DNA of 64,000 nucleotides, taken from positions 1 through 64,000 of the forward strand of contig JAFDZO010000012.1 of assembly GCA_018266845.1 (NCBI GenBank). Direction: 5' to 3'. Made by a program: the position numbers and the translations under genes. Below, one piece after another: positions 5,017-57,422 of this stretch (its first letter is position 1; each line of letters starts with the position of its first letter). This DNA comes from Bacteroidota bacterium (lineage in GTDB: Bacteria > Bacteroidota > Ignavibacteria > Tepidaquicellales > Tepidaquicellaceae). The notes below the pieces were generated by a model. It did not search any database. It saw nothing but the letters and a program-made list of their open reading frames with translations, and was not told where the DNA came from.

Positions 5017-6642
5017 TTGAATTCAACCCAAATGGAAAAAGGAAAATGGGAAACCTATCTTAACCTCAACGGCTGTCCACTTGATAGTGAGCAGGAAGCT
5101 GTTCATTCATGTGTTATATATGATTCAGATAAAGACACATGGAAAGTTCTATTTTTTGATGCCTATAATTTAGAACAAACGGATGGAGAACAATCGTATA
5201 TAAAAACAAGGATTCTGATTATGGCCGGAGGAGCTGATATTGACCAGATAACAGAACAAATTGTTCCGTTTTGGCCTCCGCCCGATAATGCTGATGAACC
5301 CAGAATGTTTTGCTCAGGACATGTTTTTCTAGATGATGGAAAGTTAATTGTTGCAGGCGGACATAGGGAGCCGGTTGTCAATAACCACTGGGCACGCGGT
5401 TTAAAATACACGTATATATTTGACCCAATAACTGAAACATGGGATTATGCAAAAAATCCAATTAGTGGTTTAGCTCAACCTATGCATGAAGGAAGATGGT
5501 ATCCTACTCTTACAAAATTAGAAGACAACAGGGTAGCAGTAGTTGGGGGCTTTAAATATAACTATGATAGAAATGGTAATGTTGTTTATAACGATACTGT
5601 TGAAGTATATACTCCTTTAGATGGATGGACACAATTACCGCCTGCAGCAAATACCCCTTCTGATTTTATACAGAACAAGGTTCTATATCCTGGAGCTCAT
5701 GTGATCCCTTATGATAACATTTATGCTAATGTAAAAGCGGGACATTTATTATATACTTTTCCCTTAAGACAGACATGGCGTTTAAACCCCAATGTAAACC
5801 CCGGAAACGATTATTGGCAGCCAATAGCTATGTCAAGACATACGAGAGGAAATGGTTCATCTGTAATTTTGCCGCTTAAACCCAATGGTGAAATGAAATT
5901 TGTAATATTTGGTGGTGCAACCGGAGATATGGAAATGCCTGAGACCGATATTGAGTTGCTTGATTTATCTTTTCCCACGGTTTCTGACTCGAATCCCCCC
6001 GCTTGGCAATTACACGGTTCAATGAATATTCCCCGCCGAAATGCAAACTGTGTGATCTTGCCCGACGGAAAAATATTTATTACGGGGGGAAACCAAATGC
6101 ATTTACGGGAAAACGGAGTTACTGTGGCAGAAATGTACAACCCTGAAACGGGTGAATGTGAGATAATGCCTTCGACAACATTTACAAGAATGTATCATTC
6201 AACAGCAATATTACTTCCGGACGCAACTGTGATGGCTTCTGGAGGTGAGTATATTTGCAGTGGTGGAATAGGAGCTGGTAATAATAATTTTGAGATTTAC
6301 ACCCCTGAGTATTTAATGCAGGGTGGCACAAGACCGATAATACTTTCTACAGGAGAAAGGGAAGTGTCCTATACAAATACATTATATATAGACATAAATA
6401 CATCTATAAATGAAGTAATTCTAATTAGTCCGGGAGTACCGACTCATGGCTTTGATCAGCATCAACGCGCTGTTTACGCAGATTTTGAAACTCTTCCACC
6501 AAATGGCACACATCCTTATCTAGTTACCATGCCCTTAAATAAATTTATTGCTCCAACAGGGTGGTATATGCTCTTTGTCATAAAAATTATCAACGGCGTT
6601 AAAGTACCTTCAATAGCAAAATTTATCAGGTTGATTGAGTAA
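5017..6642 (+). CDS. Galactose/glyoxal-oxidase-like copper radical oxidase
   Basis: 541-aa protein matching the galactose-oxidase/GlxA architecture: a seven-bladed kelch-type propeller followed by the DUF1929 early-set domain (from about residue 437). All active-site positions can be identified: Cys99 (in MFCSGHVFLDDGK) and Tyr162 (GRWYPT) for the thioether cofactor, the axial pair Tyr393-His394 (RMYHSTAILLPD), and His477 (VPTHGFDQH) in the C-terminal domain. Such enzymes oxidise primary alcohols or aldehydes with O2, giving H2O2. The start is TTG 5017 or ATG 5032; an in-frame TAA lies at 5005-5007. No signal peptide or T9SS tail is visible, which is unusual for this normally exported family. 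The next gene begins 23 bp downstream and is exported, so the two are likely one operon. Substrate unknown. Confidence 0.85.
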   Translation: MNSTQMEKGKWETYLNLNGCPLDSEQEAVHSCVIYDSDKDTWKVLFFDAYNLEQTDGEQSYIKTRILIMAGGADIDQITEQIVPFWPPPDNADEPRMFCSGHVFLDDGKLIVAGGHREPVVNNHWARGLKYTYIFDPITETWDYAKNPISGLAQPMHEGRWYPTLTKLEDNRVAVVGGFKYNYDRNGNVVYNDTVEVYTPLDGWTQLPPAANTPSDFIQNKVLYPGAHVIPYDNIYANVKAGHLLYTFPLRQTWRLNPNVNPGNDYWQPIAMSRHTRGNGSSVILPLKPNGEMKFVIFGGATGDMEMPETDIELLDLSFPTVSDSNPPAWQLHGSMNIPRRNANCVILPDGKIFITGGNQMHLRENGVTVAEMYNPETGECEIMPSTTFTRMYHSTAILLPDATVMASGGEYICSGGIGAGNNNFEIYTPEYLMQGGTRPIILSTGEREVSYTNTLYIDINTSINEVILISPGVPTHGFDQHQRAVYADFETLPPNGTHPYLVTMPLNKFIAPTGWYMLFVIKIINGVKVPSIAKFIRLIE

Positions 6643-6665
6643 CCTATTTATTATATCATTACATT

Positions 6666-8231
6666 ATGAAATTATTATTGATAATACTATTTTCATTTAG
6701 TACGCTCTTTTTATTCTCACAGCCTGCTTTGCAGTGGGCTTATGAATATCGTCCGAGCACAGGTACCAACTATGCCAATTCTGTGTTTGTTGATGATTCA
6801 GGTTACGTTTATTCAACCGGAGTTATCCAATTAACTAGATATAAATGTATTACGGTTAAACAAAAACCTAATGGAGATACTATATGGAGAAGAATTGACG
6901 AAATTCCAAATGCAGATCAAGGTGGCGCAGATGTATTAGTTGATAGCGCCGGAAATGTTTTTGTTTGTGGTAATCCGTTGTTAAGAAAATATGATAGAAA
7001 TGGAAATTTATTATTGAAAAAATTTGATACGTTAAACACGCTACCATTGGGCGCTGAAAAAATATTAAAGGATTCCAAAAATAAACTGATAATAGGAACC
7101 GAGGGCGCATACTATGGTTTACATGCTTCTGCTATTGTGATATGTAAAATTAATCCAGATGATGGAAGTATTATATGGAGAAGATTGTTTAATACTGAAA
7201 CTTCTGGTTACGCTTTAAATGATATTAAAATTGATAAAAATGATAACATTATTATAGCAGGTGAATATGGCAGTACAACACCTCCAAACTATGCTGATAT
7301 TATCATAGCAAAGTGCAGTTCCTCGGGAGATTCCCTTTGGGCATGGAAATATAATGGACCAGGTCCTTCAGGCTCTACTTCCGACTTTGCGCTTAAGACG
7401 GCTATTGATGATACAGGTAATGTTTACGCTGCCTGCTGGAGCACTAACGAGCTTGGTGGAGGTGATTTTTTTACTGTAAAGTTAACTCCTTTTGGAGATA
7501 CAGTATGGACAAGAAGATTTAATATAAACAACGGCGGCTCAGGCGCTACCGATATAGGCGTAGATAATGCAGGTAATGTTTATGTAACGGGCTTAACTTC
7601 AATATCAAATTTTACAACAATAAAATATAAAAATGACGGAACTTTTCAGTGGTTTCGTACTTTGCAGGGAGTTGCTTTCCCTTATTATCCTATGCAGACT
7701 TTAGATACTGTGGGAAATATTTATGTCGGATGTGAGAAATACCGCGGCTCATCCACAGATATACTTATATGTAAATATAACCCGAATGGAGAACAGGTAT
7801 GGACTGCAGTTTATCCGGGAACGGGGAATTCCCTAAGCGCACATGCCGAGAAAATCCTAGTGGATAAAAACAATTTTGTTTATGTCTGCGGAGTGAAAAG
7901 CTATTCATATCTGGTATTAAAATACTCTCAAACAGTTAACATACAAAACATTTCCGAAATTATTCCTGAAAGCTATTCTCTTTATCAAAACTATCCGAAC
8001 CCCTTTAACCCGAATACAAAAATCAGGTTTTCAATAAAAACACCCGGTATGGTCGAATTGATTATAACTGACGTAAATGGAAGAGAGATTGAACGAAACA
8101 GCAATTTTTTAAACGGAGGTACCTACGAAAAAACCTGGGAAGCCGGGTATTATCCCTCTGGAATTTATTTCTACAGCCTTTATGTAAATAGCAAAAAAAT
8201 TGATTCCAAAAAAATGGTACTATTGAAATAG
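6666..8231 (+). CDS. T9SS-secreted SBBP-type beta-propeller protein
   Basis: 521-aa secreted protein: signal peptide (MKLLLIILFSFSTLFLFS), then repeated strands of the form DDTGNVYAACWSTN and DNAGNVYVTGLTS typical of SBBP/bacterial propeller repeats. The end (about residue 433 onward) is a T9SS type A sorting domain with LYQNYPNPFNPNTKIRFSI and the terminal KKMVLLK. It should be exported through the outer membrane and anchored or released by the T9SS. It lies 23 bp after the copper radical oxidase gene, which suggests co-expression. The role is unknown; such propellers are binding or scaffold modules. Confidence 0.85.
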   Translation: MKLLLIILFSFSTLFLFSQPALQWAYEYRPSTGTNYANSVFVDDSGYVYSTGVIQLTRYKCITVKQKPNGDTIWRRIDEIPNADQGGADVLVDSAGNVFVCGNPLLRKYDRNGNLLLKKFDTLNTLPLGAEKILKDSKNKLIIGTEGAYYGLHASAIVICKINPDDGSIIWRRLFNTETSGYALNDIKIDKNDNIIIAGEYGSTTPPNYADIIIAKCSSSGDSLWAWKYNGPGPSGSTSDFALKTAIDDTGNVYAACWSTNELGGGDFFTVKLTPFGDTVWTRRFNINNGGSGATDIGVDNAGNVYVTGLTSISNFTTIKYKNDGTFQWFRTLQGVAFPYYPMQTLDTVGNIYVGCEKYRGSSTDILICKYNPNGEQVWTAVYPGTGNSLSAHAEKILVDKNNFVYVCGVKSYSYLVLKYSQTVNIQNISEIIPESYSLYQNYPNPFNPNTKIRFSIKTPGMVELIITDVNGREIERNSNFLNGGTYEKTWEAGYYPSGIYFYSLYVNSKKIDSKKMVLLK

Positions 8232-8559
8232 ATAGTTGTGAAATGCGCCTCACTTCACACAAAAATTTCTAACCCCTGTCAAGCAAAAAATAAAAAAATT
8301 CGCCTATTACTGCTAATACACAAATTCATCTTTGAAATAAATTTTCTTATTATTAATTTTAGTAAGTTCTTTTTTATACTTGAAAATAAGGCAAAAGCAT
8401 GAAAACCTGTTTAACTGTTTTAACAATAACTTAGCTGAAAACTTACGAGGGGGCGTAAGTTTTGCTATATGTTTTTACAGAGTTTAGCGCCACCAAAATT
8501 CGTTTTTTTCCGCTTGAAATACTCCAAAAACGGATGTTTTTGCCCCGAAAAAGCTAAAA
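8232..8559. other. Intergenic segment between convergent genes
   Basis: 328 bp between the propeller gene and ptsI. The only structure I see is the hairpin element described at 8412-8480. No credible ORF: the open frame at 8469-8663 overlaps the ptsI end and is low-complexity. Confidence 0.6.
8412..8480 (+). repeat. AGGGGG-loop hairpin element, copy 1
   Basis: Perfect 10-bp stem AAAACTTACG (8438-8447) / CGTAAGTTTT (8454-8463) around an AGGGGG loop. The flanks are also conserved with a second copy at 56875-56945: GTTTTAACA lies before the stem, ATATG just after it, and AGTTTAG further on. T-runs on both sides would let it act as a bidirectional terminator, but conservation outside the stem suggests a repeat family or small structured RNA. 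Confidence 0.65.
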
Positions 8560-10293
8560 TCAGATGCCAATCTTTTCTTTATAGAATAAATTCAGCTTCA
8601 TTTTTATCTCCTGCTCCGTATGAAGCGCAAGAAGTTCCTTTGAAAATGCCTTTATCTCTTTGAAGTTTACGGTGCGGATAATCTGCTTAATTTTGGGAAA
8701 AATATTCGGCGAAACGGAAAGCTCATCAACTCCCAGACCGATAAGCACTGCCGAAGCAAGCGGATTTGAAGCCATCTCCCCGCAGACACTGACCTTGATT
8801 TCGTTCTTATGCGCCGCCGAGATAATCTTGTTTATTGCGCGCAGGACTGCCGGGTGGAACTCCCTGTAAAGCGATGAAATAAGCTCGTTGCCTCTATCCA
8901 CAGCAAGCATGTATTGAATTAAATCGTTCGTGCCGATGCTGAAGAAATCAACTTCCTTAGCAAGCTCCTCTGCAAGCAGTACGGCAGAAGGCACTTCAAC
9001 CATCATACCAACGGGAATATGTTTATCGAAAGGGATTTTTGCTTCTGATAGTTCTTTCTTTACATCTTTCAGAATTTTCCTTGCGTCCTTAATTTCTTCC
9101 AGTGAAGAAATCATAGGAAACATGATTTTTACATTTTTCTTCGTTGAAGAAATTAAAATTGCCCTTAACTGTTCTTTGAAAATCTCTATTCTGTCGAGAC
9201 AGATTCTAATGCCTCGCCATCCGAGGAAGGGGTTCTGCTCTTTTTGCGAGCTTGGCAGCAGCTTATCGCCGCCTATATCGTAAGTGCGTATGGTAACGCT
9301 GTTAGGATGTGTTACATTTGCTATATGGGAATATTCCTCAATTTGTTCTTTTTCGGAAGGGAAGTCGCCCTTTTCAATAAATAGATGCTCCGTACGGTAA
9401 AGCCCCACACCGCAATGGGCATAGGTTGTAACGAAGTCAATTTCTTCATCAAACTCTATATTGGCAGTAAGTTCGATTTTTTTTCCGTCAACAGTTTCGG
9501 AAGGAAGCTCAATTACTTCAAATAGTTTTTGCTCATAGCGTTTATAATCTTCCAGCTTCGCGACATATTTTTCTATAGTATCATTTTTAGGATGTTGAAT
9601 TACAATTCCTTCGTATCCGTCAATGATGATTAGCTCTCCCGAAGTAATTGACTGTGAAACAACTTTCATCCCTACCACAGCAGGAACTCTAAGCGCGCGG
9701 GAAATAATAGCAGCATGTGAGGTAATGCCACCGACATCTGTAATGTACCCCTGTACTTTTCGCTTGCTGAATAAAATAGTGTCGGCAGGAGTAAGCTCGT
9801 GGGCAATGATGATGGAATTTTCCTCAACTTTTGACACGAGTTTTTCCCGCTTCATATTTCTGATAACACGGTTTTTGACATCGTTTATATCGGAAAAGCG
9901 TTCTTTCATATATTCATCATCGGCAGCAAGCAGAATTTTTCCGAGCTTGGAAATTTCATCATCGAAAACATATCCGGCGGTTCTTTTTTCGTTTATTATC
10001 CGCTTTATAACGCTCTCAAGAAAATATTTGTCATTTAATATCTCAAGCTGCGCATCAAATATCTGAGATTTCTTTTCTCCAATCCTTTCCTTTGACAGCG
10101 CATAAATTTTGTTAAGCTCTTTTACGGAAAACTCAATCGCTTTTTTAAATTCATCAAGCTCTTTTTCCACTTCGCCGTCTGAAATAACCTCGGCGTTTAT
10201 CTTTATCTGATTCCGTGTATAAAGATAAGCATGCCCTATGGAAATTCCCGGAGAAGCCGGTATGCCGTGGTATGTAATTTCTTTTCTGTTCAT
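8560..10293 (-). CDS. ptsI: PTS enzyme I (phosphoenolpyruvate-protein phosphotransferase)
   Basis: 577-aa cytoplasmic enzyme that moves phosphate from PEP to HPr. Family features in order: an N-terminal HPr-binding helical domain, the phospho-histidine domain with GGITSHAAIISRAL (His193), then a PEP-binding barrel with GVGLYRTEHLF, TYDIGGDK, GMMVEVPSA and the C-terminal VCGEMASNP containing the catalytic Cys. Length is normal. The ATG directly abuts the stop codon (TAG) of the FKBP gene upstream, so translation is probably coupled. No HPr, HprK or EII gene is in the window, so whether it serves sugar uptake or a regulatory relay cannot be told. Confidence 0.93.
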   Translation of the reverse strand: MNRKEITYHGIPASPGISIGHAYLYTRNQIKINAEVISDGEVEKELDEFKKAIEFSVKELNKIYALSKERIGEKKSQIFDAQLEILNDKYFLESVIKRIINEKRTAGYVFDDEISKLGKILLAADDEYMKERFSDINDVKNRVIRNMKREKLVSKVEENSIIIAHELTPADTILFSKRKVQGYITDVGGITSHAAIISRALRVPAVVGMKVVSQSITSGELIIIDGYEGIVIQHPKNDTIEKYVAKLEDYKRYEQKLFEVIELPSETVDGKKIELTANIEFDEEIDFVTTYAHCGVGLYRTEHLFIEKGDFPSEKEQIEEYSHIANVTHPNSVTIRTYDIGGDKLLPSSQKEQNPFLGWRGIRICLDRIEIFKEQLRAILISSTKKNVKIMFPMISSLEEIKDARKILKDVKKELSEAKIPFDKHIPVGMMVEVPSAVLLAEELAKEVDFFSIGTNDLIQYMLAVDRGNELISSLYREFHPAVLRAINKIISAAHKNEIKVSVCGEMASNPLASAVLIGLGVDELSVSPNIFPKIKQIIRTVNFKEIKAFSKELLALHTEQEIKMKLNLFYKEKIGI

Positions 10294-48452: not shown

Positions 48453-48468
48453 TGTTTCACGTGAAACA
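48453..48468. promoter_or_regulatory. parS: parS site 1 (ParB binding)
   Basis: TGTTTCACGTGAAACA is a perfect match to the universal chromosomal parS palindrome. It lies 10 bp upstream of the mnmG start. ParB loads at such sites to form the partition complex near the chromosome origin. Confidence 0.93.
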
Positions 48469-48502: not shown

Positions 48503-48518
48503 TGTTTCACGTGAAACA
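48503..48518. promoter_or_regulatory. parS: parS site 2 (ParB binding)
   Basis: A second perfect TGTTTCACGTGAAACA whose centre is exactly 50 bp from the first. Two perfect 16-bp copies this close cannot be chance. Confidence 0.93.
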
Positions 48519-56593: not shown

Positions 56594-57047
56594 AATTCAG
56601 GGTTTAGTTCATTCAAAAGTAGTGAATTCCAGTTGAGAAATTCAGTCTATTATGTATAACGCAAAAAAGAGGAAAATGATTTAAGAAAAAAAATAGAAAG
56701 AAAAAATTTTTGAAGGCTCGTTACAAAGCGGATTTTGCCAGAGGGTATCGGGGCTTCGCAACGTATGAAACGGGCAATATTTGACTGATGAAAAAGTGCG
56801 AATTATAAAGAAAAAAATTTCCCCACACTACTAATATCTCTTCTAGCATTAGCAAAAAAACAGAAAACGCATAAATTGTTTTAACAGTAATTTACGTGAA
56901 AACTTACGAGGGGGCGTAAGTTTCACCATATGAAAAAATAGGAGTTTAGGGCTTCATTTTTTCGGACAAAAAATCCCCTGCACAGCAGAACCTGTCTCCT
57001 GCCGCGAATCAAATGCGCTGATTTAAATTTTAAAAAGGTGGGGTATT
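56594..57047. other. 454-bp intergenic region with hairpin element
   Basis: Between two minus-strand genes. The only clear structure is the AGGGGG-loop hairpin copy (56875-56945). No ORF of note. Confidence 0.6.
56875..56945 (+). repeat. AGGGGG-loop hairpin element, copy 2
   Basis: AAAACTTACG (56899-56908), loop AGGGGG (56909-56914), CGTAAGTTT (56915-56923). The upstream GTTTTAACA and the downstream ATATG and AGTTTAG are shared with copy 1 at 8412-8480, in the same orientation. Both copies lie roughly 100-130 bp beyond the 3' end of a minus-strand gene. Confidence 0.65.
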
Positions 57048-57422
57048 TTATTCTAGTTCCTGAAAGATGTGGAACGTCACGCCATAAGGGTCAAGAAAGA
57101 GCGCGCTCTTCTTGTTGTAAAGTGTTACTATTACGCATCCTTCGCTTTCCAGCAAAGTTTTTGCTTCGTCAAAATCCGCAACCTTAAATTCAAGAATTAC
57201 TCTTCCGGGCTTTTGCTTTTCAACAAAGAAATTAAATTTTCCTTTTTTGAAATGAGCTTCCTTCTGGTATTTCTTAATCAAGTCCATTCCAAAAATATTT
57301 TTATAGAACTCTACAGCATTATCAAAGTCTCTTACTTGCAGAGCTACATACGGGCTGAATTCAAAATTGATTTCCTTTTTTTCGGTCTTCTCTTTTGTCT
57401 CCGTGTTAGTTTTTTTACTCAA
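57048..57422 (-). CDS. VOC-superfamily protein
   Basis: 124-aa protein of the glyoxalase/bleomycin-resistance (VOC) superfamily: a Lys/Glu-rich leader (1-20), then SPYVALQVRDFDNAVEFYKNIFGMDLI and the C-terminal SALFLDPYGVTFHIFQEL. Metal ligands are partly unclear, so a binding role is as likely as catalysis. It is 54 bp downstream of uvrC on the same strand. Confidence 0.83.
   Translation of the reverse strand: MSKKTNTETKEKTEKKEINFEFSPYVALQVRDFDNAVEFYKNIFGMDLIKKYQKEAHFKKGKFNFFVEKQKPGRVILEFKVADFDEAKTLLESEGCVIVTLYNKKSALFLDPYGVTFHIFQELE

What the first reader, a model, noticed from the sequence alone, without database searches (positions are those of the whole stretch)
8412..8480. Conserved hairpin with AGGGGG loop, present twice in the window
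Copies at 8412-8480 and 56875-56945 share not only the 9-10-bp stem and identical loop but also flanks (GTTTTAACA before, ATATG and AGTTTAG after) in the same orientation. This suggests a dispersed element or small structured RNA family, not two ordinary terminators. The run of five G in the loop might bind a protein or a C-rich partner.
Basis: seen in the sequence. Interest (0 to 1): 0.6.

Follow-up and report, generated by a model that had tools for sequence, protein, structure and literature searches.

The report
Genus-specific chromosomal palindrome with A/T arms
About 40 to 60 copies per genome of a strictly built 75-base DNA site sit between genes in the two known species of one bacterial genus, and the way they are conserved suggests a landing site for chromosome-binding proteins rather than a small RNA.

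Summary
The host genome holds 56 copies of the hairpin core (60 model hits), and the only other held species of the genus holds 38. No other genome of the class sampled has any (2 of 294 genomes). The unit is about 75 bp: left arm TG-W6-CARNANTTTA, palindrome AAAACTTACG-AGGGGG-CGTAAGTTTT, right arm again TG-W6-CARNANTTTA, arms 54 bp apart. 89 of 90 copies are intergenic and convergent gene junctions are enriched. At 18 orthologous junctions both species carry it, always in the same orientation; the core is about 94% identical while the DNA left of it is at the level of unrelated sequence. So it is kept by selection in place. The stem shows no covariation, and the arm hexamers are A or T, almost never G or C. 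Both point to recognition of double-stranded DNA, not an RNA hairpin. Best reading: a chromosomal protein-binding site, with a dimer on the palindrome and a bending or nucleoid protein on the arms, probably for chromosome organisation. The binding protein is unknown. REP repeats, recombinase sites, operators and RNA are weaker rivals. The closest described case, the palindrome family of Caldithrix abyssi, is also unexplained.

The parts
8416..8433 (+). copy 1, left arm R1: TG-TTTTAA-CA-ATAAC-TTA
   Evidence: sequence; column conservation over 90 copies; motif scan peak at -27
8438..8463 (+). copy 1, palindrome AAAACTTACG-AGGGGG-CGTAAGTTTT
   Evidence: inner 18 bp nearly invariant in 90 copies
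8470..8486 (+). copy 1, right arm R2: TG-TTTTTA-CA-GAG-TTTA (one base shorter than consensus)
8303..8320 (+). copy 1, upstream second palindrome P2 (CCTATTACTGCTAATACA), an independent repeat found at about -140 in a subset of copies
8331..8359 (+). copy 1, promoter-like TTTG-N19-TAATTT of the subset that carries P2 (consensus match only)
   Evidence: alignment of 15 subset copies; pattern count peak at -120
56877..56894 (+). copy 2, left arm R1: TG-TTTTAA-CA-GTAA-TTTA
56899..56924 (+). copy 2, palindrome AAAACTTACG-AGGGGG-CGTAAGTTTC
56931..56948 (+). copy 2, right arm R2: TG-AAAAAA-TAGGAG-TTTA
8560..10293 (-). PEP-protein phosphotransferase gene whose 3' end faces copy 1; its orthologue in G001 also has the element next to it
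   Evidence: TIGR01417
55805..56593 (-). nitrilase-family gene beside copy 2; its orthologue in G001 also has the element beside it
57048..57422 (-). glyoxalase/VOC-like gene on the R2 side of copy 2
   Evidence: weak matches

Best explanation
The element is a genus-specific, multi-copy chromosomal DNA site of about 75 bp, recognised as double-stranded DNA and kept by purifying selection at fixed places between genes. A dimeric DNA-binding protein most likely sits on the 10-6-10 palindrome. A DNA-bending or nucleoid protein (HU/IHF-like, or the same protein) sits on the flanking TG-W6-CARNANTTTA arms, which are held at a fixed 54 bp. Together they would build a compact nucleoprotein knot at roughly 40 to 60 landmarks outside transcription units. 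The likely use is chromosome organisation: nucleoid occlusion, segregation, or topological anchoring. Shown: copy number, architecture, rigid spacing, genus restriction, intergenic and convergent placement, conservation in place, absence of stem covariation. Inferred: protein binding, the bending role of the arms, and the cellular function.
For: Copy number 56 and 38, absent from the other 292 genomes sampled in the class. The arms pattern alone finds only sites with this core in the genus, so arms and core go together. Arm positions are exact in 79 and 82 of about 87 copies. 18 orthologous junctions carry it in both species, 18 of 18 in the same orientation. Core about 94% identical between orthologues, while the left flank (0.58) equals unrelated pairs (0.57). 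Arms are more alike between orthologues than between other cross-species pairs (0.66 against 0.57), so copies are inherited vertically. 89 of 90 intergenic; convergent junctions 26 of 82 against about 10% expected (p about 2e-7). No strand bias with replication, so not a Chi or KOPS type signal. Some enrichment near the probable origin in G001 (17 of 38 within 550 kb of parS, p about 0.002).
Against: No binding protein was identified. HU/IHF genes are not expanded and there is a single ParB, so no Noc-type paralogue. Origin-proximal enrichment is moderate and seen only in one species; the terminus was not located. Several own copies have no counterpart at the orthologous junction, so copies are gained or lost, as mobile repeats are. 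Only two species of the genus are available.
Confidence: 0.45

Rival explanations
1. A REP or REPIN-like repeat family: a short palindrome copied by a transposase in the past, intergenic because that is tolerated, perhaps binding gyrase or IHF-like proteins as E. coli BIMEs do.
For: Intergenic, convergent-enriched, species-specific, about 50 copies; the genus also carries other REP-like palindromes; own genome has four Y1 transposase-like matches; gain or loss at several junctions.
Against: G001 has 38 copies and no Y1 transposase match. No element lies beside a Y1 gene. No GTAG or CGTC tag at the palindrome. Conserved in place and orientation at 18 junctions with flanks saturated. Long rigid A/T-only arms are not a REP feature.
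Confidence: 0.22
2. A site for a tyrosine recombinase: two inverted 10-bp core sites around a 6-bp overlap AGGGGG, with arm-type sites or IHF sites on both sides, as in phage attP.
For: 10-6-10 geometry with a constant asymmetric spacer; direct arm repeats at fixed distance. Two own copies lie beside integrase or Xer genes. Seven own copies lie near tRNA or tmRNA genes. Two copies carry ACCCCC as a block.
Against: Both window copies lie in unbroken synteny with G001, and shared copies keep one orientation, so no rearrangement between copies is seen. Integrase neighbours are not shared by G001. No expansion of integrases (9 and 9). No phage, plasmid or full-core viral match.
Confidence: 0.12
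3. A multi-copy structured small RNA family, transcribed from its own promoter in the subset with P2 and a TTTG-N19-TAnnTTT promoter-like sequence.
For: Single copies fold better than shuffles (z -2.3 to -4.2). A promoter-like sequence and an operator-like palindrome precede a subset of copies.
Against: No covariation in 87 copies. Outer stem pairs are often broken. A/T-only hexamers without base preference. Both strands fold alike. No Rfam match. Most copies lack the promoter-like sequence.
Confidence: 0.1
4. An operator for a transcription factor, or a transcription terminator or insulator at gene ends.
For: Palindromic; intergenic; convergent enriched.
Against: Divergent, promoter-bearing intergenic DNA is depleted. 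Neighbouring genes look functionally unrelated. No U-run follows the hairpin at a fixed place; only about 40% of neighbouring genes reading towards it have a terminator-like hairpin in between.
Confidence: 0.11

Closest known systems
18-bp palindrome family of Caldithrix abyssi (PMC5317091)
   Same: 38 exact copies, intergenic, rare between divergent genes, nine between convergent genes, directional, function unknown
   Different: sequence unrelated (aAACCGTTgaAACGGTTt); the authors saw no conservation outside 18 bp and a strand preference, whereas here there are conserved arms and no strand preference
Noc-binding sites (B. subtilis) and SlmA-binding sites (E. coli)
   Same: tens of palindromic sites scattered on the chromosome (about 70 NBSs, PMC4331003); some origin-proximal enrichment here
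   Different: no Noc paralogue (single ParB); palindrome sequence and arms unrelated; terminus exclusion not tested
REP/BIME/REPIN elements and CGTC repeats
   Same: short palindromes in intergenic DNA, often downstream of genes (PMC3733652, PMC2817692)
   Different: no GTAG or CGTC tag, no partner transposase in G001, long fixed arms, copies kept in place
Tyrosine recombinase att sites with IHF (lambda type)
   Same: inverted core sites around a short overlap, flanking arm or IHF sites at fixed spacing (own knowledge; PMC4880445 was found by search only, not read)
   Different: 56 dispersed copies in one chromosome without rearrangement

Membership tests
REP / REPIN repeats | GTAG (or CGTC) tetranucleotide at one end of the palindrome | tested here: not met
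   palindrome ends in AAAA/TTTT, foot NCTCAAAA; definition from PMC3733652
REP / REPIN repeats | associated Y1 tyrosine transposase (RAYT) in the genome | tested here: not met
   4 matches in own genome, none in G001 which has 38 copies
REP / REPIN repeats | high-copy intergenic palindrome | tested here: met
   56 and 38 copies, 89 of 90 intergenic
Structured small RNA family | compensatory base changes in the stem | tested here: not met
Structured small RNA family | discrete transcript | not testable with these tools
   no transcriptome available
Tyrosine recombinase site | inverted binding sites around a 6-8 bp asymmetric overlap | tested here: met
   10-6-10, AGGGGG
Tyrosine recombinase site | recombination between copies (inversions, deletions) | tested here: inconclusive
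   none seen: collinear synteny over the window, 18 of 18 same orientation; only two genomes
Noc/SlmA-type nucleoid occlusion sites | cognate DNA-binding protein | tested here: not met
   for Noc: one ParB only; SlmA not tested
Noc/SlmA-type nucleoid occlusion sites | dispersed over the chromosome but absent from the terminus | tested here: inconclusive
   origin-proximal enrichment in G001; terminus not located
IHF-binding site | consensus WATCAANNNNTTR with A/T tract (own knowledge) | tested here: inconclusive
   arms read WAWCARNNNYTTA, close but third position mostly A; binding not testable
Rfam families | match to a covariance model | tested here: not met

The most novel reading that the evidence does not exclude
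The genus has an undescribed chromosome-wide nucleoprotein system: a dedicated dimeric protein and a bending protein assemble at 40-60 fixed landmarks to organise, segregate or guard the chromosome, or to recombine it under special conditions.
Probability: 0.3. Interest if true: 0.8.

Novelty: new variant of a known kind. Interest (0 to 1): 0.55.

Why it matters
Intergenic palindromic repeats are common, but their function is mostly unknown and usually cannot be separated from selfish copying. Here the copies are held in place across species with an invariant core, saturated flanks and a rigid three-part layout. This is good evidence for a host function at DNA level, and it gives a bait sequence with which the binding protein can be fished out.

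Tried and rejected
Rfam search (nothing). Viral, phage and plasmid searches (full core: nothing; a half-core 15-mer gave 10 hits, the order expected by chance). One exact core in a Microbacterium contig is a lone hit, not followed. Covariation as support for RNA: none. Replication polarity: none. Even spacing on the chromosome: no. Fixed distance to genes: no, though the gap on the R2 side is shorter (median 102 against 249 bp). Analogous 10-6-10 family in 400 kb of another genus (G008): none found. Apparent arm match in G005 is a chance-like site with other sequence. Expansion of HU/IHF, integrase or ParB genes in the genus: none. Integrase neighbours of two copies: not shared by the sister species. 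The exact core sequence is in no held paper.

Full report
Observation. The 22-mer AACTTACGAGGGGGCGTAAGTT occurs exactly twice in the window, with zero occurrences in shuffles. In the whole genome (3.53 Mb, 46 contigs, window = contig C3:1-64000) it occurs 56 times within three mismatches, 27 on one strand and 29 on the other, with no match to the reversed control. The only other held species of the genus (G001) has 38 copies. Other genera of the family and order have none apart from one chance-like half match. In a sample of 294 genomes of the class only these two species have it.

Anatomy. Ninety copies were collected and 87 aligned. Around the palindrome AAAACTTACG-AGGGGG-CGTAAGTTTT lie two direct repeats of the form TG-W6-CARNANTTTA, the left one starting at -26 and the right one at +28 from the core, so 54 bp apart. 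A scan with a matrix built from both arms finds them at exactly these positions in 79 and 82 copies; a weaker third repeat lies 43 bp further left in some copies (TG-W6-CA itself at -69 or -68 in about 15 copies). The hexamers hold G or C in only 28 of 1044 letters, while A and T are both frequent. The inner 18 bp are nearly invariant. Two own copies carry ACCCCC instead of AGGGGG with the arms unchanged. A search with the arms alone, the 36 bases between them left free, finds in this genus only sites with this palindrome.

DNA, not RNA. The stem does not covary: 0 compensatory pairs in RNAalifold, and on the named 13-pair stem the share of paired cells, the double changes and the covariation score equal those of shuffled partners. 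The outer A-T pair is A-C in about half of the copies. Single copies do fold better than shuffles, on both strands, as any palindrome does. Together with the A-or-T-only hexamers this favours recognition of double-stranded DNA.

Selection in place. With one contig of G001 read in full (C2, 1.75 Mb) and gene models made by a simple hexamer script, 89 of 90 copies are intergenic. Convergent junctions hold 26 of 82 classified copies against about 10% of intergenic DNA (p about 2e-7), and divergent ones are depleted. At 18 junctions the neighbouring orthologous gene has an element in both species, on the same gene side and in the same orientation in all 18. In the 16 of these pairs that could be compared in one frame, the core is 94.5% identical, whereas the left flank is as different as between unrelated copies (0.58 against 0.57). 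Arms are more alike between orthologues than otherwise (0.66 against 0.57). Both window copies are among the shared ones, and the whole window is collinear with G001 C2 1,370-1,443 kb. At other junctions only the own genome has a copy, for instance L025, where G001 has the two stop codons a few bases apart; so copies do come and go.

Chromosome position. The window contains two perfect parS sites (48453, 48503) next to mnmG, so it probably lies near the origin, although GC skew turns somewhat further off and parB is elsewhere. In G001, 17 of 38 copies lie within 550 kb of parS (p about 0.002). Orientation does not follow replication. Copies are often near tRNA or tmRNA genes (7 of 56 own, 3 of 34 in G001; roughly four times a rough expectation that assumes 46 RNA genes).

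A subset. About 15 to 20 own copies and several in G001 carry, some 140 bp to the left, a second palindrome P2, CCTATTAnTAnTAATAGG, and, in the best-aligned own copies, a promoter-like TTTG-N19-TAnnTTT between P2 and the element. P2 also occurs independently dozens of times per genome, often 20 bp from a TTGACA. I treat it as a separate family that is often combined with this one.

Function. No protein could be assigned. HU/IHF, integrase and ParB genes are not expanded in the genus, and G001 has no Y1 transposase. The layout, a palindrome for a dimer with bend-prone A/T arms at fixed spacing, placed outside transcription units and preserved in place, is best explained as a nucleoprotein landmark of the chromosome. 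The most similar described case is the palindrome family of Caldithrix abyssi, also intergenic and convergent-enriched, also without known function (PMC5317091). Noc sites (about 70 palindromes, PMC4331003) show that such a system can guide division, but a Noc homologue is absent here.

Noticed in passing
48453-48468 and 48503-48518: Two perfect parS sites (TGTTTCACGTGAAACA) beside mnmG; the window probably lies near the replication origin.
   Followed up: partly
8303-8320; many loci, e.g. L025, L026, L037: Independent dispersed palindrome family CCTATTAnTAnTAATAGG, often about 20 bp from TTGACA; 18-19 matches per strand in the own genome and 39-40 per strand in G001 (palindromic sites are counted on both strands).
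   Followed up: partly
L054 and L055 (G000 C8:79585, C28:22582): Two copies of the element with spacer ACCCCC in place of AGGGGG, five G:C pairs flipped as a block.
   Followed up: partly
L004 (tmRNA 1550-1904), L001, L016, L040, L041, L045; L078, L085, L090 in G001: Elements lie next to tRNA genes or the tmRNA gene more often than expected; in L004 the element abuts the 3' end of the tmRNA gene.
   Followed up: partly
G001 contig C2 (L142-L229): About 55 copies of a REP-like palindrome CCCTCCTTnnnAAGGAGGG and other repeats (AATGTGACAATAATG, CCGCCCCCTCAGTC), none in the stretch collinear with the window.
   Followed up: partly
L025 1439-2318: In the own genome about 870 bp of stacked repeats separate two convergent genes whose stop codons are a few bases apart in G001.
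   Followed up: partly
5032-8231: Two genes without orthologue in the collinear stretch of G001, one with a T9SS sorting domain, lie directly left of copy 1.
   Followed up: no
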